Origin: Rhodothermales bacterium
GTDB lineage: Bacteria; Bacteroidota; Rhodothermia; Rhodothermales; UBA10348
Length of the DNA stretch: 64,000 nt
Assembly (NCBI GenBank): GCA_040221055.1
Contig: JAVJVN010000012.1
Location: forward strand, 174,890 to 238,889
Reading direction: 5' to 3'
This document shows positions 1 through 17,935 of this stretch, one piece after another. The first letter of the stretch is position 1. Every line of letters begins with the position of its first letter. Both the position numbers and the translations under genes were made by a program. The notes under the pieces are model-generated. The model was not told the DNA's origin. It worked only from the letters and a program-made list of their open reading frames with translations, and searched no databases.

Positions 1-3000
1 GTGAACGTGGCGTTGTTTGCGATGGAGCGGAGGTAGGGGCTGACCGTACCCGGCGTCATGCCCGGAACATTGTCTACGAGTCCGGCCAGCGGCTGAATGC
101 GCAATGTGTAGGTAGCCGGGGGAAGGCCTGGGATGGTGAACGTGCCGTCCGCGTCGGAATACGCATGAACGCGGGCGCCATCGGCGTTACGAGCGACGAC
201 GAGCGCGCCGGCGACGGGCGTGGGCGAGAGAGACTCGCCATCCATAATCGTACCCGACATGCTGCCGAATGTCCCGGCGGCGGAAGGAGAGGGGTAACGA
301 TGCGACACCCAAGCCACGTCGTCCACCTCCAGCGACCGGTACGATGTGCCGGACGGGATGGAGAAGAACATGGTGGCAGTCGATACGCCCGAGTGGCGAA
401 GACCCAGCGCGTGTCCGAACTCGTGCGTGGCTACCGCCTGCGCATCCCAGATTTCCTTCTGGAGATCGGTACCAATTCCACCCGGTTGACCGATCAAGTC
501 GGCGTTGAAGATGATGTCGGCCTCAATGATCTCGGCTTCCTGTCCGTTCTGTGGGGCAGCGAGCAACTTCGAGGCCACGGCCAACGTGTTGCTGGACAGC
601 GGAAACTGGGGTGTGGACTTGGTGACCACATTCTGCAGGTCATTGATGGTCGGGGGGAGCACAGACGTGCTCGCGCCCCCGAAGGCAATCTTGGCCGTCG
701 TATTGGCCGTCGGAACGTCGTTCCATGCCTGGATGGCGGCTGCAATCGCGTCAGTCATGCCCGGAATGGCGGCCAGATCGCTGCTGAGCAGGAATGAGAG
801 TTGCGCATCGGCATCCACGATCTGGTCGGGAATGAACTGCAGTTCGGAACCCAGTGCAACCGACTGCGCCAGCGAGAACTCCGAGGTACCCTCGGGCCCG
901 GTGACGGTCGCCGTAATCAGATCCGTCGCTTGAACGCTGCCCGCCGGAACGGTCATCAACAAGCGGTTGCTGGCCGTGGCCGTCGCCGTGCCCAGGTACG
1001 TCTGTCCTTCCGCACCATCGGCGTCGGCCGCGAAGACCTCGACCGTGGCCGGCAGGGCAGTATCCAGGAAGACCTCCAGATCGATGTTCGTGCCGTTGAG
1101 CGTCGCCCAGTTGAATACCGGCGCGTTGGTCAGGCCGTTCGGTCCGGAGTCGGCGTCGCCCGCATCGTTGTCGTTGCGGCCGTCACCTTGATCATCGTCT
1201 GCGGTATCCGGATCGTCAAGCAGCAGGTCAATGCCCAGGCCGCCGTTGGAGAATATGCTGTTCTGGGTGATCACTGCAGCCGGCGCCGCATCGCCCGGGG
1301 AATCCTCCTTCACGAACACCCCGTTGTATCCGTTATGGGCGATGATGTTGTTTTCAATGAGGGTTTCGCCATAGCCACCCGTCAGGATTCCGTGCCCGAC
1401 GTTGCCGAAGGCGCCAGTGCCCGCAGGACCCGTGCCAATGAAGTTGCCACGCAGCACGTTGTCGTTACCCGAAGCCCATAGCACAACGCCGTCGAGCATG
1501 TTGCCCGAGAGAATATTGCCCTCAGCCCGGTTGCCCCACGCGTTGTCGGTGATGGCGAGGCCCTGACGCACGTTGCCAATGGCGGCCGTCTTCGGCACAT
1601 TGAGGCCCACGTTGTTGTCCGTGACAACGTTCAGGTTGGCACCGGAGGTGAGCACAATACCCGTGTCCACGTTGCCCGACACTACGTTGTCTGAAATGGT
1701 GTTGGCGGACGAACCGCGTTCCACCCAGATTCCGGCATACCCATTCGCGAGGGCCGCCGTGCCATTGAGATTCAGGCCAATCACATTGTGGGATACAGTG
1801 TTGCGCTCATTGACGAGTGATGTCGTGATCTGGTTTTCGGCCGCGATGGCGACGCCGTGCGTACCGTTGCCGGAGATGTAATTCCGTCCGTCAAGCGAGC
1901 CACCGACCACGTTGTCGGTAGCGCCGAACGTGATCCGGACGCCGTCAGAGCCGTTGCCCACGCTGTTGAAGCCTGACACGTCCGTTCCGATCAGGTTGCC
2001 CTGGATCGTGTTGCCCGTCGAGCCGGTGCCTTCCAGCACGATGCCTGCATCGACGTTTCCGGAGATCACGTTGGGGTCATTTCCGTTTACGCCAATCCGA
2101 TTGTCCACGGACTCCAAAATGAGCACGCCGTGGATGCCGTTCGCGGCTGCTGCATCGCCGGACTGCGTAAGACCGATGGTGTTGCCCCACAACTGGACGA
2201 GATCGGATCCGTCCCGGATTTCCACTCCCATATCGGTATTGCCCGAAATGGTGTTCTGGGAGACGGTGATGTCGCCCGAATTCGAGATGGAGATGCCGCT
2301 GCGTCCGTTTTCTACGGCGACATCGCCGGTGGCGTCTACACCTATGCGGTTACCCGAAATGGTGATGAAACGCGCCACATCCTGCAGGCGGATACCATGA
2401 CCGCCATTGCCCGAAATGGTGTTCAACCGGTACGTACCCGAGTCGGCGTTACTCACAAGAATGCCGTCGCCGGAGTTGTCGGAAATAGTGTTCAGCTCAA
2501 CCAGGGCCGCATTGCCATATAACGCGAACTGGAGGCCGGTGCCGTTGCTGGAGATATCGTTGGAGCGGATAATGCTGTTCTTTGCATCCGTCATTTGCAG
2601 GCCAATACCATTGAACCGGATGGTATTTCCGTCCACGAGCTCCGTCCCGATGCCAGCACCGAACAGGGACACGCCGCTGTTGTTTGCCAGGTTCGTTGTA
2701 CCATCGCGAGCCACGCCAATATGGTTGGCAAGAAGCTGGTTTGTGCCGCCCCAATTCCGGTTGCCATCATTCTGGCTGACCAGCTGGATACCTTCGTTGA
2801 ATCCACCGACCACGTTCTCGCGGATGATATTGCTGGCTCCCTGGTTGTTTCCAATGCCGACTGCGTTGGAAAAATTGTCCAGGTCCGGCGTGCTGAAATA
2901 ACCGCCCGGCGCCTGGAGCACGGACGTGCCGGTGGATTCGGTTCCAATCAGGTTGTGCTGGACGGTATTTGCGTCTGCGCCAGGCTCGAAATGGATTTCA

Positions 3001-6000
3001 TCGCCCGCATTGGCGGTAATGAGGTTGCCATCCGTGGCGTTCGGACCACCGATCATGTTGCCCGATGAAACGGCACTGTAACCAACCACGAAGACGCCGG
3101 AACCGAAATTGCCCTTCGCTACCGTACCGGTCTCGTCCGTACCGATATAGTTGCATCGGATGACGCTGTCGGCATTGCCTTCATCGATCCGGATACCACC
3201 ACCAGGGAAGGAGTGAATGACCAAGCCCTGAATGGTTACGTCGTTTGTGTTCGGAGCAATATCGAGACCGAACGGATTGATGAACGTCTGGTCGTCGTAC
3301 GCCAGGTTCGATCCGTCGAGCACGATCTTAAGCGCCCGGTCCGTGAAGTCGGTCGTGCCACACGTGGCGTTTGCCTGGCTGAGGCCGTTGATGACGAGCG
3401 GCGACGTAATGGTCGGCAGCCCACTCAGCGGCGCGATGGTATACACATCCGTTGTGCCACCCGAAAGGTCGAAGGTGATGGTTGGGGTTCCACCGGCACC
3501 ATTCGCCGCAATGATGGCGTTGCGCAGCGAGCCAACGCCGGAATCGTCCGTGTTGGTGACGATCAACGGATCCGCAAATTCGGTCGTAACCGTTGCCGCC
3601 GGCGAAAATTCTGATGTATTGCCATCGGCATCGATCGCGATAGCCACGATTTTGTCGCCATCGGCAACACCCAGGTTCACGGCGAAGTCCATGAAGAGCG
3701 TCGTACTGGCAAAAGGTCCGATTTGCGACGTAGCGACAAACCGATCTCCTTCCTGACCGTCCGCGTCGGCTTCATAGAATTCGAGCGTGATGGGGCCGTT
3801 GGCCGCCATCTCGGTCGAATAATCGAATTCCAGGTTACCGGACGGACTAATGCGCGCGACCAGGCCGTCGGGATAATTCAGGAGGTTGTTGGGGCCGGAA
3901 TCGACATCCGCAGCGTCGTTGCCCGTGAATCCGTCGCCCGCGAGGTCCACGCCCAGGCCGCCGTTATTACGGATCGCATTGTCCGTGATCTTGACGCGCT
4001 GAGCCGACCCGATGACGTTGATACCATTGCCGAGGTTGTTGGCAATGACGTTGTTTGAGACCTCAGAGTTGACGGTTCCATCGAGGGAAATCCCGTGCGT
4101 GCCGTTCGGCGCAGCCGTGCCGTTGCCAAGCAGACCAATCCGGTTGTTCGAAATCGTAGCGCCTGTCGTGGCATTCGCACGCGCCGTAATGCCTTCATTT
4201 ACCGAATTGACGACGACGTTTCCGTCGACAATCGCCCCGCTGGAGACGTTCGTGGCACCATTGTACGACAGCTGAATGCCGGAACGGTTCGGAACGGCAG
4301 TAGTCCCATCCGCACCCGCACCAATGATGTTGTTGCGGACCTCATTCTCAAAGCCGCCCACATTGATGGCCGGACCGCTCAGCACACCGGACGCGACGTT
4401 GTTCCGGAAAATATTGCCGGTTGTCGTCGCGTCCATACTGATCGCGGCTCCGGCATTTCCTCCGACAACAGAGGTCGTCGGGGCAATGGAGGTCACGCCG
4501 TCCGCATCGACACCGATGTAGTTGTACTCAATGATGTTACCGGTCAGGTTCGATCCCTGAATGGTAATCTGGTTGCCACTGTATCCGCCAATCACGTTGA
4601 GGTCGGCTGCAGCCGGCGAGCCGATCCTGTTGTTGGACGAACTCATCCAGATACCCCAGCTATCGGCGCTGGATGCGGGGGTGACGATGTAGTTGCCCAT
4701 GACCTGGTGTCCGCCATTGCCACGTAGATTCACGGTGCGGGTCAAGAATCCGGTGATGCTCAAGCCACGGATGGTTGATGGCGTCGCCGTTGACACGTCA
4801 AAGCCGTTGTTCACCGCATGCTGTCCGTTGACAACAACCGCATGCACGGCATTCGATCCCTGATCGAACGTGCTCGTGTTCGGCGACGAGCCTTCCTGCG
4901 TGAAACCGTCAATGATAACGGGTTGAGAAATGGTGGGCAGATCCCCACTTGTTACCAGGATCTCATGAGGGCCGGTTCCCGGGATTGCGAACGTGATCGT
5001 GTTCACATCCGCGTTTGCGTTGGCGTTCAGGATGGCCTGACGCAGCGAGCCGGGACCACTGTCGTTGGCGTTGTTGACCGTATAGGGACCAATGACCGTG
5101 AACACAGGCGAGAATTCCGATGTGTTGCCGTCCGGGAATATTTCCGAGTGGCTGGCCACCAGTCTGTCGCCCACAGCAATGCCTTGTGCGGCCGCCGACG
5201 CATAGGTCCTGGAAGGTGTAGCCGTCGACTGTCCAGAGTCGTTCAGAATCCGGGTCTGGGCTCCCGTTCCGTTATTATCCACAAAGAAGAACTCTGTCGC
5301 ATAGGGGCCATTGACCGGGGTTCCTGGCGTCCATTGCGTTTCAAGCTGACCACTCACACCAACCTGGAAAACGATGTTTTCAGGGTGGTTGAGCAGGCTG
5401 TTGGGACCCGAGTCAACATCTCCGGCATCGTTCGGGGTCACTCCGTCGGCGCCAAGGTCTATGGCGAGCCCACCATTCAAATAAATACTGTTGTTCATCA
5501 GGTTGTTGCGCACCGAGGCAGTGCCGACAACCTCAATCGCGTTCCCGGTGCTGCCGGTGACGTCGTTGAGCAGGATGGTTGCGTCGGTGGTACCTATCGG
5601 GGGATTGACCGTGTCATTGATCTCGACCAGGCGGATTCCCGTACCGTTTGGATACGTCCCGCTCCGGTTGACATTTGTGCCGATGAAATTGAAGCTGATG
5701 TTCGGCGAAGCACTACCCTCCGCCTGAACCGCCACACCTGTGAACCCGCCGATCTCGTTACTCACGATCGAGGTGTTCGGGCTTTGAACAATGTTGATAC
5801 CGGTCGCGCCGCCGTTGTTGGGGGGAAGTGCAGCCGTGGCCGTCTTGTTCAGACCAATGATGTTGTGCTCGACAGTCGTGCCGGAACCCCCTGAAATCCA
5901 GAGTGCGGCGTCGACAGCGCCCGTTATCACGTTGCCATCGGCATTGGATACGCCACCGATCATGTTGCCGGTTGCAGCCGAAATCTGAAGCCCGACATCG

Positions 6001-8867
6001 CGGATTTCGGCCAGCGTCGTGCCATTGGCCTCCGTTCCGATGAAGTTACAGGCTACCGTCGTGCTGCCGGCGCCGTCCAGGATGAGCCCGAATCCAAGTG
6101 ACCGTCCGAAGACCAGTCCACGAATCGTGGAACCGCTCGCTGTCGGCATCAGCCGCATGGTTGACGTTCCATTCGGAGCAGCCGGTGCGGATTCCAGCAC
6201 GATGCGCAACACGCGATCCGCCGGACTGGTGCCACAGGTCGCATCGCCTTGAGTAATGCCGTCCAGGACCACAGGATCGGAGATGGTGAGTTCGGTCAGG
6301 AGAGCGATCGTGTGGGGTCCGTTTCCGGGAATGTCAAAGACGATGGTCTCTGGTTCAATTCCGTTTGAGGAAGCGTTGGCGTATTCAATCGCTGCACGCA
6401 GCGAACCTTGACCGCTGTCGGCCACATTGGTCACAAGCAACGGATTGACGACTTCGAGAGGAGCCGAGAATTCTGAGGTATTGTTGTTTCCGTCCGTGAT
6501 GGTCCCCACCACAAAATCACCGATGGACATGGACAAGCCAGCAGCATTTCCCAATACCGTGGACATTGTTCCAGGAGCCGTGTAGTTGACAGCACCGGCG
6601 ATCTCCACCTGCCCCTCACCACTGGCCCCTGAATCGGCCTTGTGGAACGTGACCGTACCGGATGCCGGGGCTGAAAAGGACACGGCGAGGTTTCCACTGG
6701 CGTCGATCACGGCCGAGGTGAATGTTGGTGCAACGACACCGTCGTTTGCTCCCGGCTCAAGTAAAATGCCCTTGGCTCCGTTTCCGAAAATGCTGTTTCC
6801 GAAAATACTGTTGCCCGAATTGGCCGTTTGGATGTAGATCCCCGTACCGTTGTTGCTGATGGTGTTGTTTTGTCCGATCTGCGTGTCGTTTCCAAAGGAG
6901 TACAGACCATACGTATTGGGTATGGACTGCGCCGATGGGCCAATGCCGACCAGATTGTCCCGGATGATGTTCGAGGACCCGAACGCAATGCCCTGAAAAA
7001 AGCCACCGATAACATTCCCCGACACACCATCATTGGTGCCGGTCGTGATCCCGATGCGTTCGCGGTTACCTGGATTGATTGCAGTGTCTGTGGACGGCAG
7101 GAGGTCAGCGTTGCGATTGATGCCGACGAAGTTGTCCGTAACCTGATTGAATCCGCCCGATTCGGTCCGGATTTCATCGTATGTGTTTGCAGCGACCACG
7201 TTGGACGTGACCGTCGTGGATCCAGCCTGGATAAAAACGCCAGCACCCGTAGCCAAACGGCCGTTGCCGGCTGCAGTCAACCCGTCCGCATCCGTACCGA
7301 TATAGTTGCAACGAATCGTGTTGCCGTTGGACGTCACGTTGATGGCGTGCTGCGGCATGCGCTGAATCACAAAGCCCTGGATCGTCGAATTTCCGTCAGC
7401 CAGAGTGAATCCGACGTCCGACGGGGTTGTCATGAGACTGCCATCGAGGACGATACGCAGGAGCCTGTCGTTGAATCCTGGGCTTCCACACGTGGCGTCA
7501 CCCTGCGTCGTGGCATCAAGAATGACGGGATCGCTCAGGGACGGAAGGGCTGAAAGCAGCTGGATGGTATGAACGTCCGACGGTTGCCCCGGAATATCGA
7601 ATACTATGGTATCGGAGCCCGGAGTGGCATTGGCGTATTCAACGGCAGCCCTCAAGGACCCAGCACCAGAGTCGTTGGTGTTTATCACATCGAGGGGGCC
7701 AACATATTGATTCTCGAGGACCCGTCCGTTGAGCGAATAGATAATATCCAGGTCGGAATCGCCATCCATATCAGCAAATTCGATGGCAAATTGTGATCCT
7801 GAAAGTGGCTCGATCGAAAACAGTCCATCACCGTTCCCTGTATACAGATAGGTGAAGGGAGGGACGCCAGAACTGGAATAACCGGCTACGCCAATATCGA
7901 GGAAGCCGTCCTTGTTGACATCTCCAATTGCCGTGTCAAAACGGATGTCATCGGGAGTCGAGACCGCGGCAGTGGCGGTAAACGCACCTGTACCATCGTT
8001 GAGGAACGACTGCAAATTGCCCCTGTTCGAGATGAAAACGATGTCCTGGTAGGTGTCGTTGTTCAAGTCTCCGCTTTCAATGTTGCCATTTCCACCAGCC
8101 AGAACAGTCGTCGAGCGAACAAATCCTGGAGTAAAACCAGGCCCGGGGCCGGGATTTGAAAAGATGATATCGCCAGATTCAAATGCGATATCGTCAATGG
8201 CATCGTCATTGAATTTGCCGACCGTTACGCCATCTGTTCGGATATGCGAAATAAGCGGGTTGGCGGAAGGCAACAGGTAGGCGGTAAAACTGACTGATCC
8301 TTCAGGCAAGCCGTCATTGATAAATACTTTGGCCCCACCTGGATTATCGTTTGCGACTACAAAGTCAATCCAGCCGTCACCGTTGAAATCGCCAACAGCG
8401 ACATCAATGCTTCCATCGGCCAACCCGTCGCTCCAACTTGCTGTAGCGGCAAAGTCGGTACCACTGTCTGTAGCCAGGAACACCTGATTGGGATCACAAA
8501 CAACCGTTCCGCAACTATCATTATTCGGGTAAGCATTGGCAAAAACGACATCCAGATAGCCATCTTTATCAAAGTCAGCGAGCGCAGCGTCCATGGTTGC
8601 GTGATTATACGCGGGCCACGAACCGCCAAAGGACAGATTCCCATTCCCGTCGTTGGTATACCACGTGTTTACTCCTTCCGCTCCACTATCTGTCCGTCGA
8701 CTTGAATAAATCAGGTCATTATCTCCGTCCTTGTCAAAGTCACCGGCTACCATGCCGTAACTGACGGCAGTGCTGAAATCGCTACCCAATTGGGTGAACT
8801 GTGCGTGAGCCACCACCGGCAACAGCGAGAAAGAAAGAATGAATGCGAAAAAAGTAAAGCGCTTCAT
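1..8867 (-). CDS. Giant exported FG-GAP / CSLREL beta-helix / matrixin-like metallopeptidase (3' end outside window)
   Basis: An uninterrupted frame of 2955 codons starts at the ATG at 8867 and is still open at base 1. Residues 1-23 are a signal peptide ending AHA/Q. Residues about 25-385 hold FG-GAP/VCBS repeats of the type GDFDKDGDNDL. Four CSLREL modules begin near residues 394, 812, 1264 and 1770, each opening with an NDSGxGSLR-type motif and continuing as N-rich beta-helix repeats. A matrixin (M10-like) zinc peptidase domain spans about 2670-2857, with HEFGHALGLRH at 2815-2825 (bases 393-425) followed by a Met-turn (TATMFF) and a DDVAWVSHRYP end typical of M10 domains. A carboxypeptidase-regulatory-like Ig domain follows from about 2865. 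I infer a secreted or surface protein that binds glycan or protein through its repeats and cleaves protein. A type IX sorting domain would be expected near the unseen C-terminus, but this is not shown. It is the last visible gene of the minus-strand cassette from 13664, 90 bases after its neighbour. Confidence 0.9.
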   Translation of the reverse strand, partial: MKRFTFFAFILSFSLLPVVAHAQFTQLGSDFSTAVSYGMVAGDFDKDGDNDLIYSSRRTDSGAEGVNTWYTNDGNGNLSFGGSWPAYNHATMDAALADFDKDGYLDVVFANAYPNNDSCGTVVCDPNQVFLATDSGTDFAATASWSDGLADGSIDVAVGDFNGDGWIDFVVANDNPGGAKVFINDGLPEGSVSFTAYLLPSANPLISHIRTDGVTVGKFNDDAIDDIAFESGDIIFSNPGPGPGFTPGFVRSTTVLAGGNGNIESGDLNNDTYQDIVFISNRGNLQSFLNDGTGAFTATAAVSTPDDIRFDTAIGDVNKDGFLDIGVAGYSSSGVPPFTYLYTGNGDGLFSIEPLSGSQFAIEFADMDGDSDLDIIYSLNGRVLENQYVGPLDVINTNDSGAGSLRAAVEYANATPGSDTIVFDIPGQPSDVHTIQLLSALPSLSDPVILDATTQGDATCGSPGFNDRLLRIVLDGSLMTTPSDVGFTLADGNSTIQGFVIQRMPQHAINVTSNGNTIRCNYIGTDADGLTAAGNGRLATGAGVFIQAGSTTVTSNVVAANTYDEIRTESGGFNQVTDNFVGINRNADLLPSTDTAINPGNRERIGITTGTNDGVSGNVIGGFFQGIAFGSSNIIRDNLVGIGPSAQSIPNTYGLYSFGNDTQIGQNNTISNNGTGIYIQTANSGNSIFGNSIFGNGAKGILLEPGANDGVVAPTFTSAVIDASGNLAVSFSAPASGTVTFHKADSGASGEGQVEIAGAVNYTAPGTMSTVLGNAAGLSMSIGDFVVGTITDGNNNTSEFSAPLEVVNPLLVTNVADSGQGSLRAAIEYANASSNGIEPETIVFDIPGNGPHTIALLTELTISDPVVLDGITQGDATCGTSPADRVLRIVLESAPAAPNGTSTMRLMPTASGSTIRGLVFGRSLGFGLILDGAGSTTVACNFIGTEANGTTLAEIRDVGLQISAATGNMIGGVSNADGNVITGAVDAALWISGGSGTTVEHNIIGLNKTATAALPPNNGGATGINIVQSPNTSIVSNEIGGFTGVAVQAEGSASPNISFNFIGTNVNRSGTYPNGTGIRLVEINDTVNPPIGTTDATILLNDVTGSTGNAIEVVGTASVRNNLMNNSIYLNGGLAIDLGADGVTPNDAGDVDSGPNSLLNHPENIVFQVGVSGQLETQWTPGTPVNGPYATEFFFVDNNGTGAQTRILNDSGQSTATPSRTYASAAAQGIAVGDRLVASHSEIFPDGNTSEFSPVFTVIGPYTVNNANDSGPGSLRQAILNANANADVNTITFAIPGTGPHEILVTSGDLPTISQPVIIDGFTQEGSSPNTSTFDQGSNAVHAVVVNGQHAVNNGFDVSTATPSTIRGLSITGFLTRTVNLRGNGGHQVMGNYIVTPASSADSWGIWMSSSNNRIGSPAAADLNVIGGYSGNQITIQGSNLTGNIIEYNYIGVDADGVTSIAPTTSVVGGNAGAAISMDATTTGNIFRNNVASGVLSGPAINVGGFENEVRNNIIGAGADGTTAVPNRSGIQLSYNGATNVSSGAIVDGNVVVNSVNEGITARANATTGATISNNRIGLLGNGTAAPNGTHGISLDGTVNSEVSNNVIANNLGNGINVIGSAQRVKITDNAIRNNGGLGVDLAGDGFTGNDAADVDSGPNNLLNYPDGLVARISPSGNLEFDYSTEMAANGPITLEFYEADADGQEGDRFVATSQIGPFASTTLFMDFAVNLGVADGDKIVAIAIDADGNTSEFSPAATVTTEFADPLIVTNTDDSGVGSLRNAIIAANGAGGTPTITFDLSGGTTDVYTIAPLSGLPTITSPLVINGLSQANATCGTTDFTDRALKIVLDGSNLAYDDQTFINPFGLDIAPNTNDVTIQGLVIHSFPGGGIRIDEGNADSVIRCNYIGTDETGTVAKGNFGSGVFVVGYSAVSSGNMIGGPNATDGNLITANAGDEIHFEPGADANTVQHNLIGTESTGTSVLQAPGGYFSTPDLDNFSNAVGIGNNQGASNIIRENVVGGFNEGIQLVSQNDGNRNWGGTNQLLANHIGVARDGTTNLANNSGVSLFGAGIGTELVDGNTIRFNGIGLQMTDAKNSIIRSNDISSNGTGLQFALYGNAALVELNTISDNSGDGILVSNADSGTYRLNTISGNGGHGIRLQDVARFITISGNRIGVDATGDVAVENGRSGISISNSGDITVSQNTISGNTDMGVEIRDGSDLVQLWGNTIGLTQSGDAAAANGIHGVLILESVDNRIGVNGNDPNVISGNVDAGIVLEGTGSTGNTIQGNLIGTDVSGFNSVGNGSDGVRITFGATDNVVGGSLDGRNYISGNGTHGVAIAAENQITTSLVNERNTVSHNVIGLNLNGTAALANGYAGIWVERGSSANTISDNVVSGNVDTGIVLTSGANLNVVTDNNVGLNVPKTAAIGNVRQGLAITDNAWGNRAEGNILSGNMLDGVVLWASGNDNVLRGNFIGTGPAGTGAFGNVGHGILTGGYGETLIENNIIAHNGYNGVFVKEDSPGDAAPAAVITQNSIFSNGGLGIDLLLDDPDTADDDQGDGRNDNDAGDADSGPNGLTNAPVFNWATLNGTNIDLEVFLDTALPATVEVFAADADGAEGQTYLGTATATASNRLLMTVPAGSVQATDLITATVTGPEGTSEFSLAQSVALGSELQFIPDQIVDADAQLSFLLSSDLAAIPGMTDAIAAAIQAWNDVPTANTTAKIAFGGASTSVLPPTINDLQNVVTKSTPQFPLSSNTLAVASKLLAAPQNGQEAEIIEADIIFNADLIGQPGGIGTDLQKEIWDAQAVATHEFGHALGLRHSGVSTATMFFSIPSGTSYRSLEVDDVAWVSHRYPSPSAAGTFGSMSGTIMDGESLSPTPVAGALVVARNADGARVHAYSDADGTFTIPGLPPATYTLRIQPLAGLVDNVPGMTPGTVSPYLRSIANNATF
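870..7688 (-). repeat. Four protein-level CSLREL/beta-helix modules in the giant gene
   Basis: The modules start at about 7688, 6434, 5078 and 3560. Each opens with (N/V)xxDSGxGSLRxAI. The second to fourth are each preceded by a short sequence ending in NTSEFS. Three blocks end with a D(V/A)DSGPN-(S/N/G)-L motif near 5410, 3900 and 1160. Module lengths are about 418, 452, 506 and 890 residues, so the last is about twice as long. DNA identity between modules is low, which indicates old, diverged duplication and not a recent expansion. Confidence 0.8.
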
Positions 8868-8957: not shown

Positions 8958-9530
8958 CTATCGCTGCAACAGGCGCCGTTTGAACTCGTCCAGCGACAGG
9001 GACTTGGCGGACCGGACCGGTCCTTCGACGTGCGTATCGGCTTCTGAGGCGTCCGTCTCGCTGGCTTCGAGTTGATCGAACAGCGCGGCTCCACCGACAA
9101 CCTCCCGGGCGCGGGACACGGCATCGGTTTTGACCTCCAGTTTGCCGCGTGCGCCACCGTTCACGACGGTCAGGCCACTCGAGTGCCGTTCCAGGAATAC
9201 AACGGCATCTTCTCCCGTCACGAATTCCGGCATGTCCGATACTTCGTGGATGTACGGCCCGATCTGTCCGCCCGGCACGATGACCACCGTTTCTCCGGCG
9301 GCACTTCCCGACAGGGATTCCTCAACCTGCAGGGTGACGCGGGTCAGGATGGCCGATCGGTCATCATTCCAGAAGGATTCCGTTTTCACGGTCCGGGCCA
9401 GGACGACCGATTCGGATGTGTCCTTGAGTTGCTTGACGGATAGTCGGATGTCGCTCGACTGCGCCTGTGCGTCCAGAGGGAGCAACACGACCAGGCAAAG
9501 GCCGAGGGCCCGGAAGAGGTTGCGGTACAT
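8958..9530 (-). CDS. Exported protein of 190 residues, matrixin-associated type (unnamed)
   Basis: I place the start at the ATG at 9530 because it is followed directly by a signal peptide (MYRNLFRALGLCLVVLLPLD, cleavage after AQA). The frame stays open further upstream, but that part has no signal sequence and runs into the next gene. The mature part has a beta-rich pattern: VVLARTVKTESFWNDD, then a TLQVEESLSG block, PGGQIG, and FVTGEDAVVFLE. From memory, similar small exported proteins occur beside bacterial matrixin genes; I cannot assign a reaction. The gene ends 90 bases before the giant metallopeptidase gene and lies 68 bases after the CHAT gene, all on the same strand. A role in folding, inhibiting or delivering the peptidase is inference from position only. 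Confidence 0.75.
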   Translation of the reverse strand: MYRNLFRALGLCLVVLLPLDAQAQSSDIRLSVKQLKDTSESVVLARTVKTESFWNDDRSAILTRVTLQVEESLSGSAAGETVVIVPGGQIGPYIHEVSDMPEFVTGEDAVVFLERHSSGLTVVNGGARGKLEVKTDAVSRAREVVGGAALFDQLEASETDASEADTHVEGPVRSAKSLSLDEFKRRLLQR

Positions 9531-9598: not shown

Positions 9599-12500
9599 TT
9601 ATTCGTGCGCACCGAAGTGCACGAATGGCGCCCAGTAGAAGGGGTGGGCCGTGGTCTCGTCGGCCAACATGGTACGTTTCGATGCACGAAGCGCGTCGGC
9701 CACAGGCTCGCCGTCCGTGATCATGCCCGCATAAAGATGCGTCATGAGCTCGGCGGTGGTGGCATCGGCCACACTCCAGAGACTGGCGACGACCGATGCG
9801 GCACCGGCGTACATGAACGCCCGCGTCAAGCCCACCATGCCTTCGCCCTGGATGAGTTGTCCGAGGCCCGTCTCGCACGCCGACAGGACGACCACGTCGG
9901 ATGGAATCCGCAGATTGAATATTTCGGATGCCTGCAGCAGGCCCTCGCCCCTCGATGCGCCGCGGGTAAGCGCGAGCGCCGAGAAATCCGGGCGGTCATC
10001 ATCTATCAGCCCGTGCGTGGCAAAATGGACGAATCGGTAGGAATCGCCGGCCACGCGCTCCCGGACGGCGGCTTCCGTAGCGTCATCGCCCGTCAGGACA
10101 TCCACGCTGCCGACATCGAATACGCCGGAAATGGCACGCACTTCATCGCCCGTGAAGGGCAGGGGCGCCAGGGATGCCCCACGCAGCGCGGCGAACGTAT
10201 TCGTACCGCCGAAATCAGGGTTTCCGATGGCCAGCAACTGTTTGGAAGGGGCTCGGGCCACGCGCCCGGAAAGCTGCTGAAGCACACTGGCCGACTGCAC
10301 GTACGACACGGCTGCGTCATTCACGAGGTAGCGGTGCGTCGCCCAGGACGTTCCGGGTTCCACCACGAGCGCATCGAACGGCACATAGTGCAGTGCATCA
10401 TCCGCAATGATCGTGACGTGGGAAGCCGCCGCGACCAGGTCGGAAGCCGGACCGATCAGGATGTCATGAAGCTGGCCGGCGGTCTCTGCGTACTGGGCGG
10501 GACTGACGCGGGCCGGATCCTGCAGCGCGAACCGCAGCACGTCAATCCGGGTGGAGAGGTCGCTGCGGACGGGCAGCAGGTGGATGTCCGCCTGGTCCGG
10601 GGAGATGGCCCACAGTGTGGAGCTTGAGTCGCCGACCGCATAGGCAAGCACGACTTGTCCGGGACGGAGCGTGCCCTGCAGACCCGCGAGGTCGATCGGA
10701 TCCGGGTAGCGCAGATCTGCATAAGCCGGATTCTGTTCACGGAGGGCCCGTTCCACGCGGTCGAATTCCTGTTCCTGTTCCCGGATCTGGGCCTTCAACG
10801 CGGCACGCGCAGCGGCATCGGGCGCGTCCAGCAGCTCCTGGCGCAAGTACACCAGATTGTCGGTCAGGATCTGCTGATCGGAGAGCAGTTCGGCGTCGAC
10901 GCCTACGTCAATCCGGGCAATGGACTCGGCCAGTTGATCCGAGAAGGCCCGCGCGCGCGCCATCTCCGATACGTTGAAGGCCGCTTCGGTCCAACGGGAA
11001 TCGCCCGTGTGAATGGCTTCCTGGGTCAGGAAGTCCACGACGTCCTCAAACAAGTAGCGACTCTGGGCCAACCAGCCCGCCTTGTCCTCGGAAGCCCGTA
11101 GCAACCCCCGGGTGGATTCCATGGCGCCAAAGCCCTGCTCGTACCAGGCGTAGGCCTGGTCGGCCTGTCCGGACTGTTCGGCCACATCGCCCAACCCGAA
11201 CAACGCTCCGATTTCCAACTCGGGAAGAGACCACTCGCGGGCAATATCCAGTGCCTCCATGTACTGTTCGGTGGCCGCGTCCGGGCGGCCCGAACGGAGG
11301 AGGGCGTTTCCGAGACCGGTATGGATGGTGCCCAGGGTCGGGACGCTGGAGAGCGTATCGGCCAGGGTCCGGGCCTGGTCCAGGAAGTCCAGGGATTGCT
11401 GGTATTCACGCGACTCGAAGTGAGCGCTGCCCAGATTGACCATGGCGTTCAATTCGCCCTCCGGATCGTCCTGCTCCCGGGACAACCCCAGCGAGCGCTC
11501 GAACCACGGCACCGCCCGATCCGGCCGGCCGGTCCAGATGAAGACCACGCCGATGTTGTTCTGGGCACTGGCCAGAAGGTCGGGCAGGTCATGCTCCTCG
11601 GCCAGGCGGATGACCTCCTGGTAGTGCTGGATGGCGGATTCGAAGTCCCCGAGGCGCCGGTAGACAATACCCATGGAGTTGGACACGAGGGCTTCTGCAC
11701 GTGCATCGTTGATGGCGCGCAGATCGGACTTCAGTCGGAGCAGCTCCACGAGCGCGTCCGAATGCATCTCCATGTAATCGGTCAGCAGTCCGATGGCATT
11801 GTTGCGCTGGCCGATGGACCGGGCCGTGTCACCCACGGCAATGTAGAGTTCGGCACCTTTCTGGAAGTATGTCGTCGCCGCATCGTAATCGCCGAGGGCC
11901 TCATAGGAGAGGGCAATGTTCGGGATCATCCGGCTCTGGGCAAGGGAATCGCCTATGTTCCACCGGATGCCCTCGGCCTCGAGGTAGTACGCCAGAGCCC
12001 GTTCCGGCTCACGTGAAATGACGCGATGGTACACCCCAAGGTCATTCAGGCTGTTGCCGACGAGTTGCAGGTCGCCAAGTTCGCGCCGCTTTTCAAGCGC
12101 CTGTTCGTTCCATGACCGGTATAGTGCCCGCTCGGGGTCCAGCCACCAGTTCACGTATCCGAGCTGACCGAGGGTCTCGGCTTCGCCAGCCAGGTCGCCG
12201 ATTCCGCGGTAGAGTTCCAGCGCCTGGAGGTACAGGGCGTGCGCTTCTCCCCGGGTTTCGGCGTCGCTCCGACGGGCAAACGCCTCGTCATACAGGCTGT
12301 CGGCGTGCAGTTTAACGGCCCGCTGCTCCGCGGACCAGGTTCGTGCCGCCTCCACCCGCACCATGAGGGAGGACTCGCCATAGGTATCCTGGAAGGCGCG
12401 GGCCAGGGCCCCGGCTCGGATCGTCCATGCGTCCCGCTCGGACGCAGTGCTCGCCCGCATGGCCTGTTCCAACCATGCTTCCACGACCGGCTTCACCGTC

Positions 12501-12619
12501 AATCGCTGCTCCAGATTCACCGAGTCCGGCAGCGCGGCAGCGTCTTGCGGCGCATCCTGTGCTCGGGCCACCCCGGGAATCAACATGGACAGGAGGATGA
12601 GGGTATGGAGGAGGCGCAT
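9599..12619 (-). CDS. Exported TPR-CHAT protein (caspase-like cysteine protease fold), 1006 residues
   Basis: A signal peptide (about 1-21, ending ARA/Q) is followed by about ten tetratricopeptide repeats between residues 115 and 530, a helical linker, and a C-terminal CHAT domain from about 690 to the end. The CHAT catalytic pair is intact: His869 in HFATHG (codon 10013-10015) and Cys915 in LSACETG (codon 9875-9877). CHAT domains are clan CD relatives of caspases and separases; TPR-CHAT proteins usually use the TPR array to sense a partner before cleaving a target. The signal peptide places this one in the periplasm or outside the cell, unlike cytoplasmic CHAT effectors of CRISPR or gasdermin defence. 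It follows the FecR-domain gene by 76 bases and precedes the 190-residue gene and the metallopeptidase. Its substrate is unknown, and no gasdermin gene is nearby. Confidence 0.93.
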   Translation of the reverse strand: MRLLHTLILLSMLIPGVARAQDAPQDAAALPDSVNLEQRLTVKPVVEAWLEQAMRASTASERDAWTIRAGALARAFQDTYGESSLMVRVEAARTWSAEQRAVKLHADSLYDEAFARRSDAETRGEAHALYLQALELYRGIGDLAGEAETLGQLGYVNWWLDPERALYRSWNEQALEKRRELGDLQLVGNSLNDLGVYHRVISREPERALAYYLEAEGIRWNIGDSLAQSRMIPNIALSYEALGDYDAATTYFQKGAELYIAVGDTARSIGQRNNAIGLLTDYMEMHSDALVELLRLKSDLRAINDARAEALVSNSMGIVYRRLGDFESAIQHYQEVIRLAEEHDLPDLLASAQNNIGVVFIWTGRPDRAVPWFERSLGLSREQDDPEGELNAMVNLGSAHFESREYQQSLDFLDQARTLADTLSSVPTLGTIHTGLGNALLRSGRPDAATEQYMEALDIAREWSLPELEIGALFGLGDVAEQSGQADQAYAWYEQGFGAMESTRGLLRASEDKAGWLAQSRYLFEDVVDFLTQEAIHTGDSRWTEAAFNVSEMARARAFSDQLAESIARIDVGVDAELLSDQQILTDNLVYLRQELLDAPDAAARAALKAQIREQEQEFDRVERALREQNPAYADLRYPDPIDLAGLQGTLRPGQVVLAYAVGDSSSTLWAISPDQADIHLLPVRSDLSTRIDVLRFALQDPARVSPAQYAETAGQLHDILIGPASDLVAAASHVTIIADDALHYVPFDALVVEPGTSWATHRYLVNDAAVSYVQSASVLQQLSGRVARAPSKQLLAIGNPDFGGTNTFAALRGASLAPLPFTGDEVRAISGVFDVGSVDVLTGDDATEAAVRERVAGDSYRFVHFATHGLIDDDRPDFSALALTRGASRGEGLLQASEIFNLRIPSDVVVLSACETGLGQLIQGEGMVGLTRAFMYAGAASVVASLWSVADATTAELMTHLYAGMITDGEPVADALRASKRTMLADETTAHPFYWAPFVHFGAHE

Positions 12620-12695
12620 GGTAATCAGGTCCAGGTCAGGTCAACGCAGGTGGTCGACCAATGTCGGGTCAATACAAAACAGAACGGGCCGGCCG

Positions 12696-13664
12696 TCAGT
12701 CTTTCTGCGAAAGACTTACGGCTTTCTGGAGAGCCTGGATTGCGGCGTCTTTCTGGCCCGTCTGGCTGTACAGACGGCCGAGGATCCGGTGAACGGAAGC
12801 AGACTGGGGATGCTGCGTGGCGATCCGGTTGAACGCGATGACGGCATCGCCGAGGAGGTCCTGTCCCGCGTAATACGTCCCGAGCACGTACCAGAATTCG
12901 CTGGACTCGGTCTGTCCGTGAAACATGGACTGGATGCGGGCCCGGTTGGCCTCGACAGACGCGGCCGTTTCGTCATCCGCCACTTCAAACGAGTAGAGTG
13001 GAGAAGAGACCACGTCGAGCATGTCCTCGGCTTCGACCTGCCAGTAGTAGCTCACGCCGGAAACCAGCGCAGGGGCCGTGGCAGGGTACTGGAGTTCCGA
13101 GGCATCCGTTGCTCCGGACCAGATGGTGGTACCTGCGGATTGCACCTTGATGGTGTACAGGTCGAAACCGTCCACGGCCGTCCATGAAAACGTGGGTACC
13201 GCGTTCGGTATGAGCGTATTCACGGGGTAGGCTGCTTGCAAGGCCTCCGAAGAGGGCGCGTTCCTGAGGCCGCCCAGGACGGCAATCTCACCTTCCCCGG
13301 CCCGGTGCAACATGACGTCGGACGCTACGGCCAGCAGCTCGCCATCGAGTTCGCGGACGGGTCCCGACAAGGCCGGGGATGCTATGGAAGATGCGCTGAC
13401 CGTCATGCTGGCATTCCCCTCGAGGGACAGCATGTTGCCGTTGGCGAAGAGGAGGGCGGTCCGGGCGTTCTCGGCCGTGCGGATTCGATCGCCTTCGAAG
13501 AGTTGGGTGCCCCATTCGGCAGGAGCGAAGGATTGCGAGCCCGCGCGGGCCACTTCGACGGTACCGTTGATGTCCGTCAGGAGGGCGACACGGTTCTGGG
13601 CACTGGAGGACGCAGGTAATGCGAGGAGGACCACCAGAAAGGTGGCAAAGAGGAAGTGTCGCAT
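12696..13664 (-). CDS. Exported FecR-domain protein with FN3-like and TPR segments
   Basis: The protein has 322 residues. A signal peptide (about 1-22, ending SSAQ) is followed by a FecR-type beta domain at about 25-110, with the pattern NGTVEVARAG...LFEGDRIRTAENARTAL. A FN3-like segment (SWTAVDGFDLYTIKVQSAG, about 160-225) follows, and the C-terminal 90 residues resemble a TPR pair (IATQHPQSASVHRILGRLYS). True FecR sensors have an N-terminal anti-sigma region and a membrane helix; both are absent, so this is not a classical iron-dicitrate regulator. FecR-like domains are often found next to TPR-CHAT genes and may act as surface or peptidoglycan-proximal adaptors. It is the first gene of the cassette running to base 1. 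Confidence 0.85.
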   Translation of the reverse strand: MRHFLFATFLVVLLALPASSSAQNRVALLTDINGTVEVARAGSQSFAPAEWGTQLFEGDRIRTAENARTALLFANGNMLSLEGNASMTVSASSIASPALSGPVRELDGELLAVASDVMLHRAGEGEIAVLGGLRNAPSSEALQAAYPVNTLIPNAVPTFSWTAVDGFDLYTIKVQSAGTTIWSGATDASELQYPATAPALVSGVSYYWQVEAEDMLDVVSSPLYSFEVADDETAASVEANRARIQSMFHGQTESSEFWYVLGTYYAGQDLLGDAVIAFNRIATQHPQSASVHRILGRLYSQTGQKDAAIQALQKAVSLSQKD

Positions 13665-14173: not shown

Positions 14174-14598
14174 TCGGATTGGGAGGCTGCAATCGCGGCT
14201 GCATAGAGCCGGATCTGTTTGATCATGCTGTCGAGTCCGTTCTTCCGCGTCGGCGAAAGGTGCTCCTTCATTCCGATCTCATCCAGGAAGGACAGGTCGG
14301 CCGCAGCAACGGATTCTGCGGGCTGGTCATTGAGGACGCGGAGCAGGGCGGCAATGAGGCCGCGGGTAATCTGGGCGTCGGAATCGGCTGTGAAATGGAT
14401 GCGTTGGCCGTGGGGCTCGGCGTGCAACCACACCTGGGCCTGACATCCCTGGATCCGGTAGGTGTCTGTCCGGAAGGCGTCTTCGATGGCCGGTACTGAC
14501 GCCCCCAGGTCTATCAGGTACTGGTATTTGTCCATCCAGTCATCAAACATCGCAAATTCGTCCACGAGCGCACGTGCACGGTCCTGGATCTCGGTCAT
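14170..14598 (-). CDS. sufE: SufE, sulfur acceptor for SufS
   Basis: The protein has 142 residues, full length for the family. The acceptor Cys52 lies in IQGCQAQVWL (codon 14443-14445), and the N-terminal FAMFDDWMDKYQYLIDLG is the usual SufE opening. SufE takes the persulfide sulfur from SufS and passes it to the SufBCD scaffold. The gene overlaps sufS by 4 bases at one end and sufT by 4 bases at the other, which fits translational coupling. Confidence 0.96.
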   Translation of the reverse strand: MTEIQDRARALVDEFAMFDDWMDKYQYLIDLGASVPAIEDAFRTDTYRIQGCQAQVWLHAEPHGQRIHFTADSDAQITRGLIAALLRVLNDQPAESVAAADLSFLDEIGMKEHLSPTRKNGLDSMIKQIRLYAAAIAASQSE

Positions 14599-15818
14599 GA
14601 CAGCATCTTGTGGGCCTTGCGGAGGCCATCGACCAATCGGTCGATTTCGTCCGTCGTATTGTAGAACGCGAAGGATGCTCGGACCGTCCCGGGAATGCCG
14701 AAGCGCTTCATGAGGGGTTGGGTGCAGTGGTGGCCCGTACGGACCGCAATGCCCAGCCGGTCCAGGATGGTGCCGACATCATACGGATGGGCATCACCCA
14801 GAAGGAATGAGACCACCGACACTTTGTCGCGGGCTGTTCCCACAATCCTGAGTCCCGGCAACTCGGTCAGAGCGCGGGTGGCCCGGGCCAGGAGATCCTG
14901 TTCCTGGGTCCGGATCCAGGCATGACCCACGGATTCCACGTAGTCCAGGGCGGCGGCGAATCCGATGGCGCCTGCAATATGGGGCGTGCCCGCCTCGAAC
15001 TTGTGGGGCAGTTCATTGAACGTCGTCCCGCTGAAATCCACCTCTTCGATCATGTCACCGCCACCTTGGTACGGGGGCATGTCGTCCAGCAGGGCCTCCT
15101 TGCCGTACAGTACGCCGAAGCCGGTGGGTCCGAACGCCTTGTGGCTGGAGAAGCAGTAGAAATCGCAGTCCAGGTCCTGGACGTTGACGGGACCATGCGG
15201 CAGGGCCTGGGCACCGTCCAGGAGTACCGGTACCCCGAAGGCGTGTGCATCCGCAATCATCCGCTTCACGGGATTCACGGTACCCAACGTGTTCGATGCG
15301 TGCACCACACCTACGATGGCGACATCGTCTTCCATGAGTGCGCGCTGGTAGTCTTCGTAATCCAACTCCCCGTTCTCCAGTACGTGCACGGCGCGGACGC
15401 GGGCGCCGGTTTCGGCACAGATGAGTTGCCAGGGGACAATGTTGGAGTGGTGCTCCATGGCCGTGAGCAGCACCGTCTTTCCGGGACCCAGATTCGTGCG
15501 ACCCCACGATGATGCCACCAGGTTGATGGCGTCCGTCGTCCCCCGGGTGAATACGATTTCCGAACGGTTGGCGGCCCCGATGTACGACTGGATGCGATCC
15601 CGGGCGGCTTCGAACGCCGTCGTGGCCAACTGACTGAGGGTATGCACACCCCGGTGTACGTTGGCATTCTCCTCCCGGTAATAGTGCGCCATCCGGTCCA
15701 GGACGGCCTGGGGCTTCTGGGCCGTCGCCGCATTGTCCAGGTAGGCCACGGGGTAGCCGTGAACGTGGGTGGCGAGTGCTGGAAAGTCCCGGCGGATATC
15801 GGGAGGGGATGCGATCAC
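14595..15818 (-). CDS. sufS: SufS cysteine desulfurase
   Basis: The protein has 407 residues and is a PLP-dependent class V aminotransferase-fold enzyme that releases sulfur from L-cysteine as an enzyme persulfide. The PLP lysine is K227 in SSHKAFGPTGFG, and the catalytic Cys365 lies in RTGHHCTQP, matching the group II (SufS) type. The start is GTG at 15818, overlapping the sufD stop (GTGA). The position between sufD and sufE is standard for the operon. Confidence 0.97.
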   Translation of the reverse strand: MIASPPDIRRDFPALATHVHGYPVAYLDNAATAQKPQAVLDRMAHYYREENANVHRGVHTLSQLATTAFEAARDRIQSYIGAANRSEIVFTRGTTDAINLVASSWGRTNLGPGKTVLLTAMEHHSNIVPWQLICAETGARVRAVHVLENGELDYEDYQRALMEDDVAIVGVVHASNTLGTVNPVKRMIADAHAFGVPVLLDGAQALPHGPVNVQDLDCDFYCFSSHKAFGPTGFGVLYGKEALLDDMPPYQGGGDMIEEVDFSGTTFNELPHKFEAGTPHIAGAIGFAAALDYVESVGHAWIRTQEQDLLARATRALTELPGLRIVGTARDKVSVVSFLLGDAHPYDVGTILDRLGIAVRTGHHCTQPLMKRFGIPGTVRASFAFYNTTDEIDRLVDGLRKAHKMLS

Positions 15819-17107
15819 AAGGACAGCTGTTCTGTTATGCGTGTGTTCAGGTAGTCGCGCAAGGGCTCGATGGTGACGAGTTCAATCACGTCACGGGCAA
15901 AGGCTTCAATGAGCATGGTGCGGGCGCGCTTCGCCGGAATTCCGCGGCTTTGCAGGTAAAAGAGGGCTTCTTTGTCCAGTTCGCCCGTGGTCGCTCCGTG
16001 ACTGCACTTCACATCGTCCGCGTAGATTTCCAATTCCGGCTTCGCGAAAATCCGGGCGGACCGGTCCAGGAGGATGCTCTTGGAAGACTGGTAGGCATTG
16101 ATCTTCTGGGCATCCTGTCGAACCAGGACCTTGCCGTTGAAAACACCGGTGGAGCCGTCGGCAATGATGCCCTTGAACAACTCGTTCGAGAAGCAATTGG
16201 GCTTGGCGTGATCCACCATCGTGTGATTGTCGATATGGGAACCGTTCCGCGCAATGTAGAGACCGTTCAAATGGGTCTCGCAGTGCTCGGCGTCCGGAAG
16301 GAAATGCAGGTTGTGCCGGACGAGATCGCCACCGAGCGTAATGTGATTGGTGGAGAATACGCTGGACTCGGCCTGATGCACATGCAACGTGTTGACGAAA
16401 CGGGCTTGCGGCTCCCGTTCGAAAATGACCAGGTGCCGGACATTGGCTTCTGCACCCACGAACATCTCCACGACGCGATTTTCGAACGACGTACCGGCAC
16501 CGGCCGGACCGAAGTGCTCAACCACGTGGGCATGCGCGTTGCGGGCGGCCACCAGCAGCACGCGTGGCTGGATGAACCCGTTGGTCGATAGCCGGGAGTG
16601 GTGTATGTACAGCGGTTTGTCCAGGTGCACGCCTTCGGCAACATGGATGAACACGCCATCGTCCGCAAAAGCCGTGGCAAGCGATGCGAATGGATCGGCA
16701 TTCCCGGCTACTGCCTTCGACAGGTACTCCTGGACGAGGGCGGTGTGCGTTTCATACGCCTCCCGGAGGCTCGAGACCGTGACCCCGTCGGGCAGCCCTT
16801 GGAGGTTCGCGTTCATCGGGCGCCCATCCAGCGTGTGGATGTGCCATCCTTCGAAATCCTGAAGGGGGGACGTCGGAGACGTTTCCGGACGATTCAGTTC
16901 GAGGGATGACCCATCGCCGAGCCACTTGGAGACGGGTGTGTACTTGTACGCTTCCGACTTGGCCGCGGGGAAACCGGCCTCGGCGAACTGCTTGATGGCG
17001 CGTCGCCGGTCTACCAGCCAAGGGTCGGTCGTACCGTTTCCGAGCAGTCCGACTTTCTGATCGAAGGACTCGATCAGCGTCGTTTCCAATGATTTTTCCG
17101 TGGTCAT
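15815..17107 (-). CDS. sufD: SufD, Fe-S scaffold complex subunit
   Basis: The protein has 430 residues and is a beta-helix paralogue of SufB. It pairs with SufB and SufC in the SufBC2D scaffold. The C-terminal motif KCSHGATTGELDKEALFYL carries the conserved histidine implicated in cluster assembly, and GIPAKRARTMLIEAFA is typical of the family. The gene lies 2 bases downstream of sufC. Confidence 0.96.
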   Translation of the reverse strand: MTTEKSLETTLIESFDQKVGLLGNGTTDPWLVDRRRAIKQFAEAGFPAAKSEAYKYTPVSKWLGDGSSLELNRPETSPTSPLQDFEGWHIHTLDGRPMNANLQGLPDGVTVSSLREAYETHTALVQEYLSKAVAGNADPFASLATAFADDGVFIHVAEGVHLDKPLYIHHSRLSTNGFIQPRVLLVAARNAHAHVVEHFGPAGAGTSFENRVVEMFVGAEANVRHLVIFEREPQARFVNTLHVHQAESSVFSTNHITLGGDLVRHNLHFLPDAEHCETHLNGLYIARNGSHIDNHTMVDHAKPNCFSNELFKGIIADGSTGVFNGKVLVRQDAQKINAYQSSKSILLDRSARIFAKPELEIYADDVKCSHGATTGELDKEALFYLQSRGIPAKRARTMLIEAFARDVIELVTIEPLRDYLNTRITEQLSL

Positions 17108-17109
17108 GA

Positions 17110-17877
17110 TTATTGAGCGATCATTCCGGTTTCTTCACGGATCCAGTCGTAGCCCCGTTCTTCGAGCTCCAGTGCCAATTCCTTGCCACCCGAGCGCACA
17201 ATGCGGCCACCCACCAGGACGTGGACATGGTCGGGTACGATGTAGTCGAGCAGGCGCTGGTAGTGGGTAATGACCACGAACGAGCGGTTGGCATTGCGCA
17301 ACGAGTTGACGCCATCGGCAACGACACGCAGGGCGTCGATGTCCAGTCCCGAATCCGTTTCATCCAGCACGGCCAACGAGGGATCCAGCATGGCCAACTG
17401 GAAGATCTCGTTGCGCTTCTTTTCACCGCCCGAGAACCCTTCGTTGACTGCACGGGCCTTGAGGGACGGATCCAAGTTGACCAATGCGGCCTTTTCACGC
17501 ATGAGCGCGAGGAACTCGCTGGCCGACAGATCGGGCAGACCACGGTATTCGCGGACCGAAGAAACGGCCTGTTTCAGGAAGTTGGACATCGAGACACCCG
17601 GCAGTTCAACCGGATACTGGAACGCCAGGAAAAGCCCCTTGCGCGCCCGCTCGTCCGCTTCCAACTCCAGGAGGTCGTCCCCCTGGAATGAAATGGTACC
17701 CTCTGTGACTTCGTAGCCGTCACGGCCGGCAAGCACCGATGCGAGCGTACTCTTGCCCGATCCGTTCGGGCCCATGATGGCATGTACTTCACCGGGGCCC
17801 ACCTTCAGGTCCAGGCCTTTCAGGATTTCCGTACCGTCTTCCTCTATGGAGACGTGGAGGTTTTTGATATCCAGCAT
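17110..17877 (-). CDS. sufC: SufC, ABC-type ATPase of the SUF scaffold
   Basis: The start chosen is the ATG at 17877 (MLDIKNLHVSIEEDG), giving 255 residues; a TTG two codons upstream is possible. Walker A is GPNGSGKST, the ABC signature is FSGGEKKR, and Walker B is LAVLDETDSGLDID, which are exact SufC-type motifs. ATP hydrolysis by SufC drives the conformational change in SufB and SufD during cluster assembly. The spacer to sufB (17878-17935) holds an unusual poly-G and CAGGG repeat, annotated separately. Confidence 0.97.
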   Translation of the reverse strand: MLDIKNLHVSIEEDGTEILKGLDLKVGPGEVHAIMGPNGSGKSTLASVLAGRDGYEVTEGTISFQGDDLLELEADERARKGLFLAFQYPVELPGVSMSNFLKQAVSSVREYRGLPDLSASEFLALMREKAALVNLDPSLKARAVNEGFSGGEKKRNEIFQLAMLDPSLAVLDETDSGLDIDALRVVADGVNSLRNANRSFVVITHYQRLLDYIVPDHVHVLVGGRIVRSGGKELALELEERGYDWIREETGMIAQ

Positions 17878-17899
17878 CGTCAACTGATTTGGTTCGAAT

Positions 17900-17934: not shown

Positions 17935-17935
17935 C

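What the first reader, a model, noticed from the sequence alone, without database searches (positions are those of the whole stretch)
1..8867. Giant protein with an unusual domain order: FG-GAP, four CSLREL beta-helices, then matrixin peptidase
The peptidase is at the far C-terminal side, after more than 2600 residues of repeats, and carries a full HExxHxxGxxH and Met-turn. FG-GAP beta-propellers and CSLREL beta-helices are usual in adhesins, so the protein could bind first and cut at the contact site. The fourth module is about twice as long as the others.
Basis: partly seen in the sequence, partly recalled or inferred. Interest (0 to 1): 0.6.

Follow-up and report, generated by a model that had tools for sequence, protein, structure and literature searches.

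The report
Giant secreted protease with TIMP-fold partner
The gene encodes a 4,133-residue exported bacterial protein that carries a matrixin (MMP-like) protease in its middle; the gene just in front of it makes a small protein predicted to fold like animal TIMPs, and relatives of that small protein sit beside or are fused to matrixin-type proteases in almost every genome of the phylum where they were found.

Summary
The whole gene (window 8867 to 1, continuing outside) encodes 4,133 aa in one open frame: signal peptide, FG-GAP repeats, four "DSGxGSLR" beta-helix modules, a matrixin (HEFGHALGLRH at 2815), CarboxypepD_reg, three Big_5, a YVTN propeller, TSP3 repeats and a T9SS type A sorting domain. 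So the peptidase is central, not C-terminal. SprA and the PorU sortase are in the genome. The architecture is conserved in relatives, so it is no artefact.

The more interesting part lies just upstream (8958-9530): a 190-aa exported protein in no Pfam or NCBIfam family. Its predicted structure is closest to NTR/TIMP domains. In a 395-genome phylum sample, 29 of 30 copies lie directly upstream of, or fused N-terminally to, a metzincin with an HExxH site. Within the family, both genes occur in the same 9 of 27 genomes.

Best reading: an operon for a surface matrixin with a dedicated TIMP-fold partner that probably keeps it latent until export. Inhibition is inferred, not shown. Precedents: potempin/KLIKK pairs of Tannerella and the Mtz-Tim pair of Listeria. 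The partner has no mature cysteines, so it is not a TIMP proper. New variant of a known kind.

The parts
1..8867 (-). 5' 8.87 kb of the giant gene (ATG at 8867); gene continues to G000:C12:171355, 4,133 aa in all
8802..8867 (-). Sec-type signal peptide MKRFTFFAFILSFSLLPVVAHA|Q (by inspection)
   Evidence: no signal-peptide predictor run
7713..8741 (-). FG-GAP repeats, residues about 43-385
   Evidence: FG-GAP_3, 5 stretches, E 7e-25
6468..7712 (-). Beta-helix module 1 (DSGAGSLR at residue 399)
5103..6452 (-). Beta-helix module 2 (GSLR motif at 817)
3588..5093 (-). Beta-helix module 3 (GSLR motif at 1269)
888..3578 (-). Beta-helix module 4, double length (GSLR motif at 1775); second half realigns to module 3
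282..845 (-). Matrixin (M10) catalytic domain, residues about 2675-2862
393..425 (-). Zinc motif HEFGHALGLRH
   Evidence: invariant residues
93..260 (-). CarboxypepD_reg domain, residues 2870-2925
8958..9530 (-). Partner gene: 190-aa exported protein with predicted NTR/TIMP-like OB fold, conserved upstream of the giant gene in relatives whose contigs cover the place
9599..12619 (-). TPR-CHAT (caspase-like) protein with signal peptide; HFATHG and SACETG motifs intact
   Evidence: CHAT E 4e-74; conserved in relatives
12696..13664 (-). Exported FecR-like/TPR protein, first gene of the cluster (FecR is my reading; Pfam gives sub-threshold DUF7354 and TPR repeats)

Best explanation
The locus is an operon-like cluster (FecR-like protein, TPR-CHAT protein, NTR/TIMP-fold partner, giant matrixin) in a T9SS-bearing bacterium. 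The giant is exported by Sec, then by the T9SS through SprA, and is processed by the PorU sortase. At the surface, FG-GAP and beta-helix modules hold it to its target and the matrixin cuts. The small partner has a signal peptide but no sorting domain, so it should stay in the periplasm, where it most likely binds the matrixin and keeps it latent or correctly folded until export, in place of a propeptide. In other lineages the same domain is fused N-terminally to the protease and would act in cis. Shown: gene order, domain content, sorting domain, T9SS core parts, the partner-metzincin linkage, predicted fold. Inferred: target binding, proteolytic activity, partner location, inhibition or latency.
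For: Full protein and domains; 72 sorting domains, PorU (954 bits) and SprA (1909 bits) in the genome. The zinc-site residues and Met-turn Met are invariant over 10 homologues; the profile matches MMP-20 (5e-9) and karilysin (3e-8) in the PDB. The partner is conserved beside the giant gene in relatives and found in the same 9 of 27 family genomes (Fisher p 2e-7). In the phylum sample, outside the family, 11 copies lie directly upstream of and 13 are fused to a metzincin, against 1 that is not. The partner model (pLDDT over 90 in the core) has agrin NtA, TIMP-1, TIMP-2 and PCOLCE NTR as its 8 best PDB matches; weak independent Pfam NtA match, E 0.018. Intergenic gaps are 68-90 bases on one strand.
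Against: Foldseek E-values are only 1e-3 to 1e-2 with TM about 0.5 on the target, so the fold call is good but function cannot be read from it. Mature partners have no conserved cysteine, so the TIMP zinc-chelating N-terminus is missing. Most Bacteroidota-type M10 proteins found have no such partner. One distant copy (G221, L090) has no metzincin beside it. In G095 (L050) the zinc motif carries a one-residue insertion (HELGHAALGLIH). The matrixin model is of low confidence (pLDDT 64), worst near the Met-turn.
Confidence: 0.5

Rival explanations
1. The small NTR-fold protein is a folding or export chaperone for the matrixin-bearing giant, not an inhibitor.
For: Near-obligate linkage and N-terminal fusions fit a folding helper as well; it lacks the TIMP cysteines.
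Against: Known proteins with this neighbourhood and fold class are inhibitors (potempins: PMC7296668 for gene order and inhibition; the OB fold is from my own knowledge).
Confidence: 0.25
2. The partner is a substrate or effector released by the protease, as proposed for Listeria Tim cut by Mtz.
For: Listeria precedent of a metzincin and TIMP-like pair where cleavage releases the TIMP-like part (PMC8235301).
Against: No lipobox in the window partner's signal peptide (by inspection); fused forms exist in which partner and protease are one chain.
Confidence: 0.12
3. The giant protein is a structural adhesin or surface-coat protein whose matrixin domain is vestigial or only self-processing.
For: Most of its length is binding-type repeats; one relative (G095) has an altered zinc motif.
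Against: Zinc ligands, catalytic Glu and Met-turn are kept in all 10 and in canonical spacing in 9; the dedicated partner is kept with it.
Confidence: 0.13
4. Domain order is an artefact (frameshift, misassembly).
For: None in the window genome; only the G100 relative shows a broken frame, in the repeat part.
Against: One open frame in the window genome and the same order in independent relatives.
Confidence: 0.01

Closest known systems
Potempin / KLIKK-protease pairs of Tannerella forsythia (potempin A with karilysin)
   Same: [quoted passage not shown] From my own knowledge, potempin A is an OB-fold inhibitor of karilysin, a matrixin.
   Different: Potempins are lipoproteins; this partner has no lipobox. 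No potempin was hit by the partner profile in the PDB or appears among the 50 best Foldseek matches. Here the protease is a 4,133-aa protein, and in other lineages partners are fused.
Mtz-Tim pair of Listeria (PMC8235301)
   Same: Metzincin gene next to a gene for a structurally TIMP-like exported protein.
   Different: Gram-positive, phage-linked, protease gene first, partner a lipoprotein cut by the protease; sequence relation to this family not tested.
Animal TIMPs and NTR domains (agrin NtA, PCOLCE)
   Same: Best fold matches of the partner model; the protease is of the MMP family that TIMPs inhibit.
   Different: No cysteines in the mature part, hence no Cys1 chelation and no disulfides; no significant sequence match.
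Karilysin and other bacterial matrixins (M10A)
   Same: HExxHxxGxxH with Met-turn; profile match E 3e-8; T9SS sorting domain.
   Different: Domain embedded after about 2,660 residues of repeats; no recognised propeptide.
T9SS surface proteins with FG-GAP and beta-helix modules
   Same: Same building blocks and sorting domain.
   Different: This combination with M10 in the middle was seen only in the window's family, among 114 genomes of the order.

Membership tests
Matrixin (M10) peptidase | HExxHxxGxxH zinc motif plus Met-turn | tested here: met
   Pfam M10 over cut-off
Matrixin (M10) peptidase | Matrixin catalytic fold | tested here: inconclusive
   MMP-13 match E 1.3e-3, TM 0.56 on target, but model pLDDT 64
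Matrixin (M10) peptidase | Peptidase activity | not testable with these tools
   needs protein
T9SS type A cargo | Signal peptide and C-terminal Por_Secre_tail | tested here: met
   signal peptide by inspection only
T9SS type A cargo | Secretion machinery in the genome | tested here: met
   PorU and SprA over cut-off; other components not searched
CSLREA/CSLREL domain | Match over the family cut-off with Cys motif | tested here: not met
   18.5 bits against a cut-off of 25; motif is GSLR
TIMP (partner) | NTR/OB fold | tested here: met
   8 best Foldseek hits of the predicted model are NTR/TIMP, E 1e-3 to 1e-2; weak Pfam NtA match
TIMP (partner) | N-terminal zinc-chelating Cys and disulfides | tested here: not met
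   no Cys in mature partner, nine relatives
TIMP (partner) | Inhibits a matrixin | not testable with these tools
   only genomic linkage is shown
Potempin (partner) | Small exported protein encoded directly upstream of a T9SS protease | tested here: met
Potempin (partner) | Lipoprotein (lipobox) | tested here: not met
   signal peptide ends LDAQAQ, no lipobox; by inspection
Potempin (partner) | Sequence homology to PotA-E | tested here: inconclusive
   no potempin among PDB profile hits; the paper with their structures is not held

The most novel reading that the evidence does not exclude
A so far unnamed, widespread bacterial family of TIMP/NTR-fold proteins acts as dedicated regulator of matrixin-type proteases, in trans from the upstream gene or in cis as an N-terminal fusion, so that the MMP-TIMP pairing known from animals has a bacterial counterpart across this phylum and allows T9SS bacteria to carry an active matrixin safely through the periplasm.
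Probability: 0.4. Interest if true: 0.8.

Novelty: new variant of a known kind. Interest (0 to 1): 0.6.

Why it matters
Bacterial counterparts of TIMPs are almost undescribed: the Listeria authors found no record of TIMP-like bacterial proteins in the literature (PMC8235301), and potempins are known, as far as I know, from one genus. A family tied to metzincins in 29 of 30 sampled occurrences, including fusions, would give a testable set of inhibitor-protease pairs, bear on where the NTR fold and matrixin control come from, and help explain how T9SS bacteria export proteases without damaging their own envelope.

Tried and rejected
Frameshift or assembly artefact: rejected, open frame and conserved order. 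'CSLREL' modules: rejected as a name, motif is GSLR and the CSLREA model is below cut-off. PDB sequence relatives of the partner: none meaningful. Partner on plasmids: none. Known family for the partner: none in Pfam or NCBIfam; DUF4131 and NtA are below cut-off only. Reverse linkage: most M10 loci in the phylum lack the partner (of the 30 fetched with 1.5 kb flanks, one more had it, fused: L141), so it belongs to a subset of matrixins. Promoters and terminators in the cluster: no more than in shuffles. Papers on CHAT with FecR and TPR, or on giant FG-GAP/beta-helix proteases: nothing relevant.

Full report
WHAT IS THERE. The window is G000:C12:174890-238889 of a 3.3 Mb, 22-contig genome. The finding is the 5' part of a minus-strand gene; I fetched the rest. 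The complete gene, C12:171355-183756, encodes 4,133 aa from the ATG at window 8867. Pfam and NCBIfam give, in order: FG-GAP repeats, beta-helix/NosD repeats, matrixin (2804-2858, E 2.3e-8), CarboxypepD_reg (2870-2925), three Big_5, a YVTN/lactonase-type propeller (about 3420-3720), TSP3 repeats and Por_Secre_tail (4055-4130). The peptidase is therefore about two thirds along the chain.

THE BETA-HELIX PART. Four DSGxGSLR caps start at 399, 817, 1269 and 1775. Modules 1-3 are 415-502 residues, the fourth about 897; the second half of the fourth realigns to module 3 (residues 469-875 on 63-468, 30% identity), so it looks like two modules, the second without a cap. Relatives differ in the number of capped modules, the usual behaviour of such repeats.

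THE PEPTIDASE. The whole domain is conserved in nine further sequences of the same family at 33-70% identity, and His2815, Glu2816, His2819, Gly2822, His2825 and the Met-turn Met are invariant. A profile of the domain finds MMP-20, MMP-1 and karilysin in the PDB. The predicted model is of modest quality but matches MMP-13. This is a canonical zinc site by sequence; activity is not shown. In one relative (L050) one residue is inserted before the Gly (HELGHAALGLIH); what that does is unknown.

IS THE DOMAIN ORDER REAL. Four relatives with complete frames, and the 3' part of a fifth, show the same order: FG-GAP, a variable number of beta-helix modules, M10, CarboxypepD_reg, three Big_5, propeller, sorting domain. 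Among 114 genomes of the order, full-length matches to the peptidase region were found only in the window's own family, in 9 of 27 genomes.

THE NEIGHBOURS. Upstream on the same strand, with gaps of 68-90 bases, lie a 190-aa exported protein (8958-9530), a TPR-CHAT protein with both catalytic motifs (9599-12619) and an exported FecR-like/TPR protein (12696-13664). In the relatives the partner lies directly upstream of the giant gene in eight loci and CHAT upstream of it again; FecR is seen in the four whose contigs reach far enough. In L052 (G090, giant cut at its start by the contig end) CHAT lies downstream; another contig of that genome (L120) has a partner followed by an FG-GAP start. In G026, of another family, CHAT and partner precede a different giant ORF with LRR-like repeats, cut by the contig end.

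THE PARTNER. It has no Pfam or NCBIfam match. Its alignment has invariant PGG, SDMPxF and GK positions. The AlphaFold2 model has pLDDT above 90 in the core. The eight best PDB matches are all NTR/TIMP structures: agrin NtA, TIMP-1 in complex with MT1-MMP, TIMP-2, PCOLCE NTR (E 1e-3 to 1e-2). Independently, one distant member matches the Pfam NtA model over nearly its whole length, below cut-off (E 0.018). I take the OB/NTR fold as likely, not proven.

THE LINKAGE. A partner profile run over 395 genomes of the phylum gave 30 places in 27 genomes. Five are in the window's family, all beside the giant. Of the other 25, 11 lie directly upstream of an ORF with a metzincin-type HExxH site, 13 are the N-terminal domain of such an ORF (eight read in full; the other five inferred from partner and M10 matches in one open frame or, for G106, read in L124), and one has none. 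Fused proteins that were scanned also carry T9SS tails. In the window's family, giant and partner are present or absent together (9 with both, 18 with neither; Fisher p 2e-7), and their pairwise distances correlate (Spearman 0.64, none of 2000 permutations as high), though shared ancestry of neighbouring genes would give that too. Genomes of one family are not independent, so the p value is only a guide. Fusion in some lineages and adjacency in others is the classic sign of a functional pair.

MECHANISM. Matrixins are usually kept latent. The giant has no recognised propeptide before its matrixin domain, and T9SS cargo crosses the periplasm before export (general knowledge). A periplasmic partner with a TIMP-like fold would do the work of a propeptide, and fused forms would do it in cis. 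The signal peptide without a sorting domain fits a periplasmic place. Every step about inhibition is inference. Against a literal TIMP mechanism, no cysteine is left in the mature protein.

COMPARISON. Two precedents exist. In Tannerella forsythia, KLIKK protease genes are directly preceded by genes for potempins, small lipoproteins that inhibit the co-expressed protease (PMC7296668); from my own knowledge potempin A has an OB fold and inhibits karilysin, a T9SS matrixin. In Listeria, a metzincin and a TIMP-like lipoprotein form a pair (PMC8235301). The present family matches the arrangement but not the lipoprotein nature, and no sequence relation to potempins was detected in the PDB copy. I therefore call it a new variant of a known kind.

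LIMITS. One low-confidence model for the protease; no complex prediction; fold similarity at borderline E-values; organism unnamed (T9SS and the sorting domains point to the Bacteroidota); no search outside the phylum for the partner except plasmids.

Noticed in passing
P0002 residues about 3430-3690 (L004); also L045-L050: Propeller region holds short 'ESSxRDVEVSPDGG' mini-repeats of about 20 residues, half the usual YVTN unit; L050 (G095) has more of them, degenerate.
   Followed up: partly
L050 10279-11244: Zinc motif of the G095 relative is HELGHAALGLIH, one residue longer than canonical; possibly inactive or altered.
   Followed up: partly
L045 14302-14323: The G100 relative's giant frame is split in the repeat region into 632 and 2868 aa ORFs; sequencing error or real break not resolved.
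   Followed up: no
L119 (G026): In another family, TPR-CHAT and partner genes precede a different giant ORF with LRR-like repeats, cut by the contig end; no metzincin seen.
   Followed up: partly
window 9599-13664: Exported TPR-CHAT protein with intact dyad plus FecR-like protein, conserved with the giant matrixin in the family; a second protease of unknown role at the same locus. The genome has only one other CHAT gene.
   Followed up: partly
window 4818-5894 (+); L050 9772-16008 (-): Long open frames antisense to the giant genes (358 aa; 2078 aa in L050), probably by-products of GC-rich codon usage.
   Followed up: no
window 14595-19387: Class V aminotransferase and two SufBD-type genes on the same strand: a SUF iron-sulfur cluster operon upstream of the cluster.
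   Followed up: no
L002 8654-10321 (-): A 555-aa ORF downstream of the giant gene without any Pfam match.
   Followed up: no
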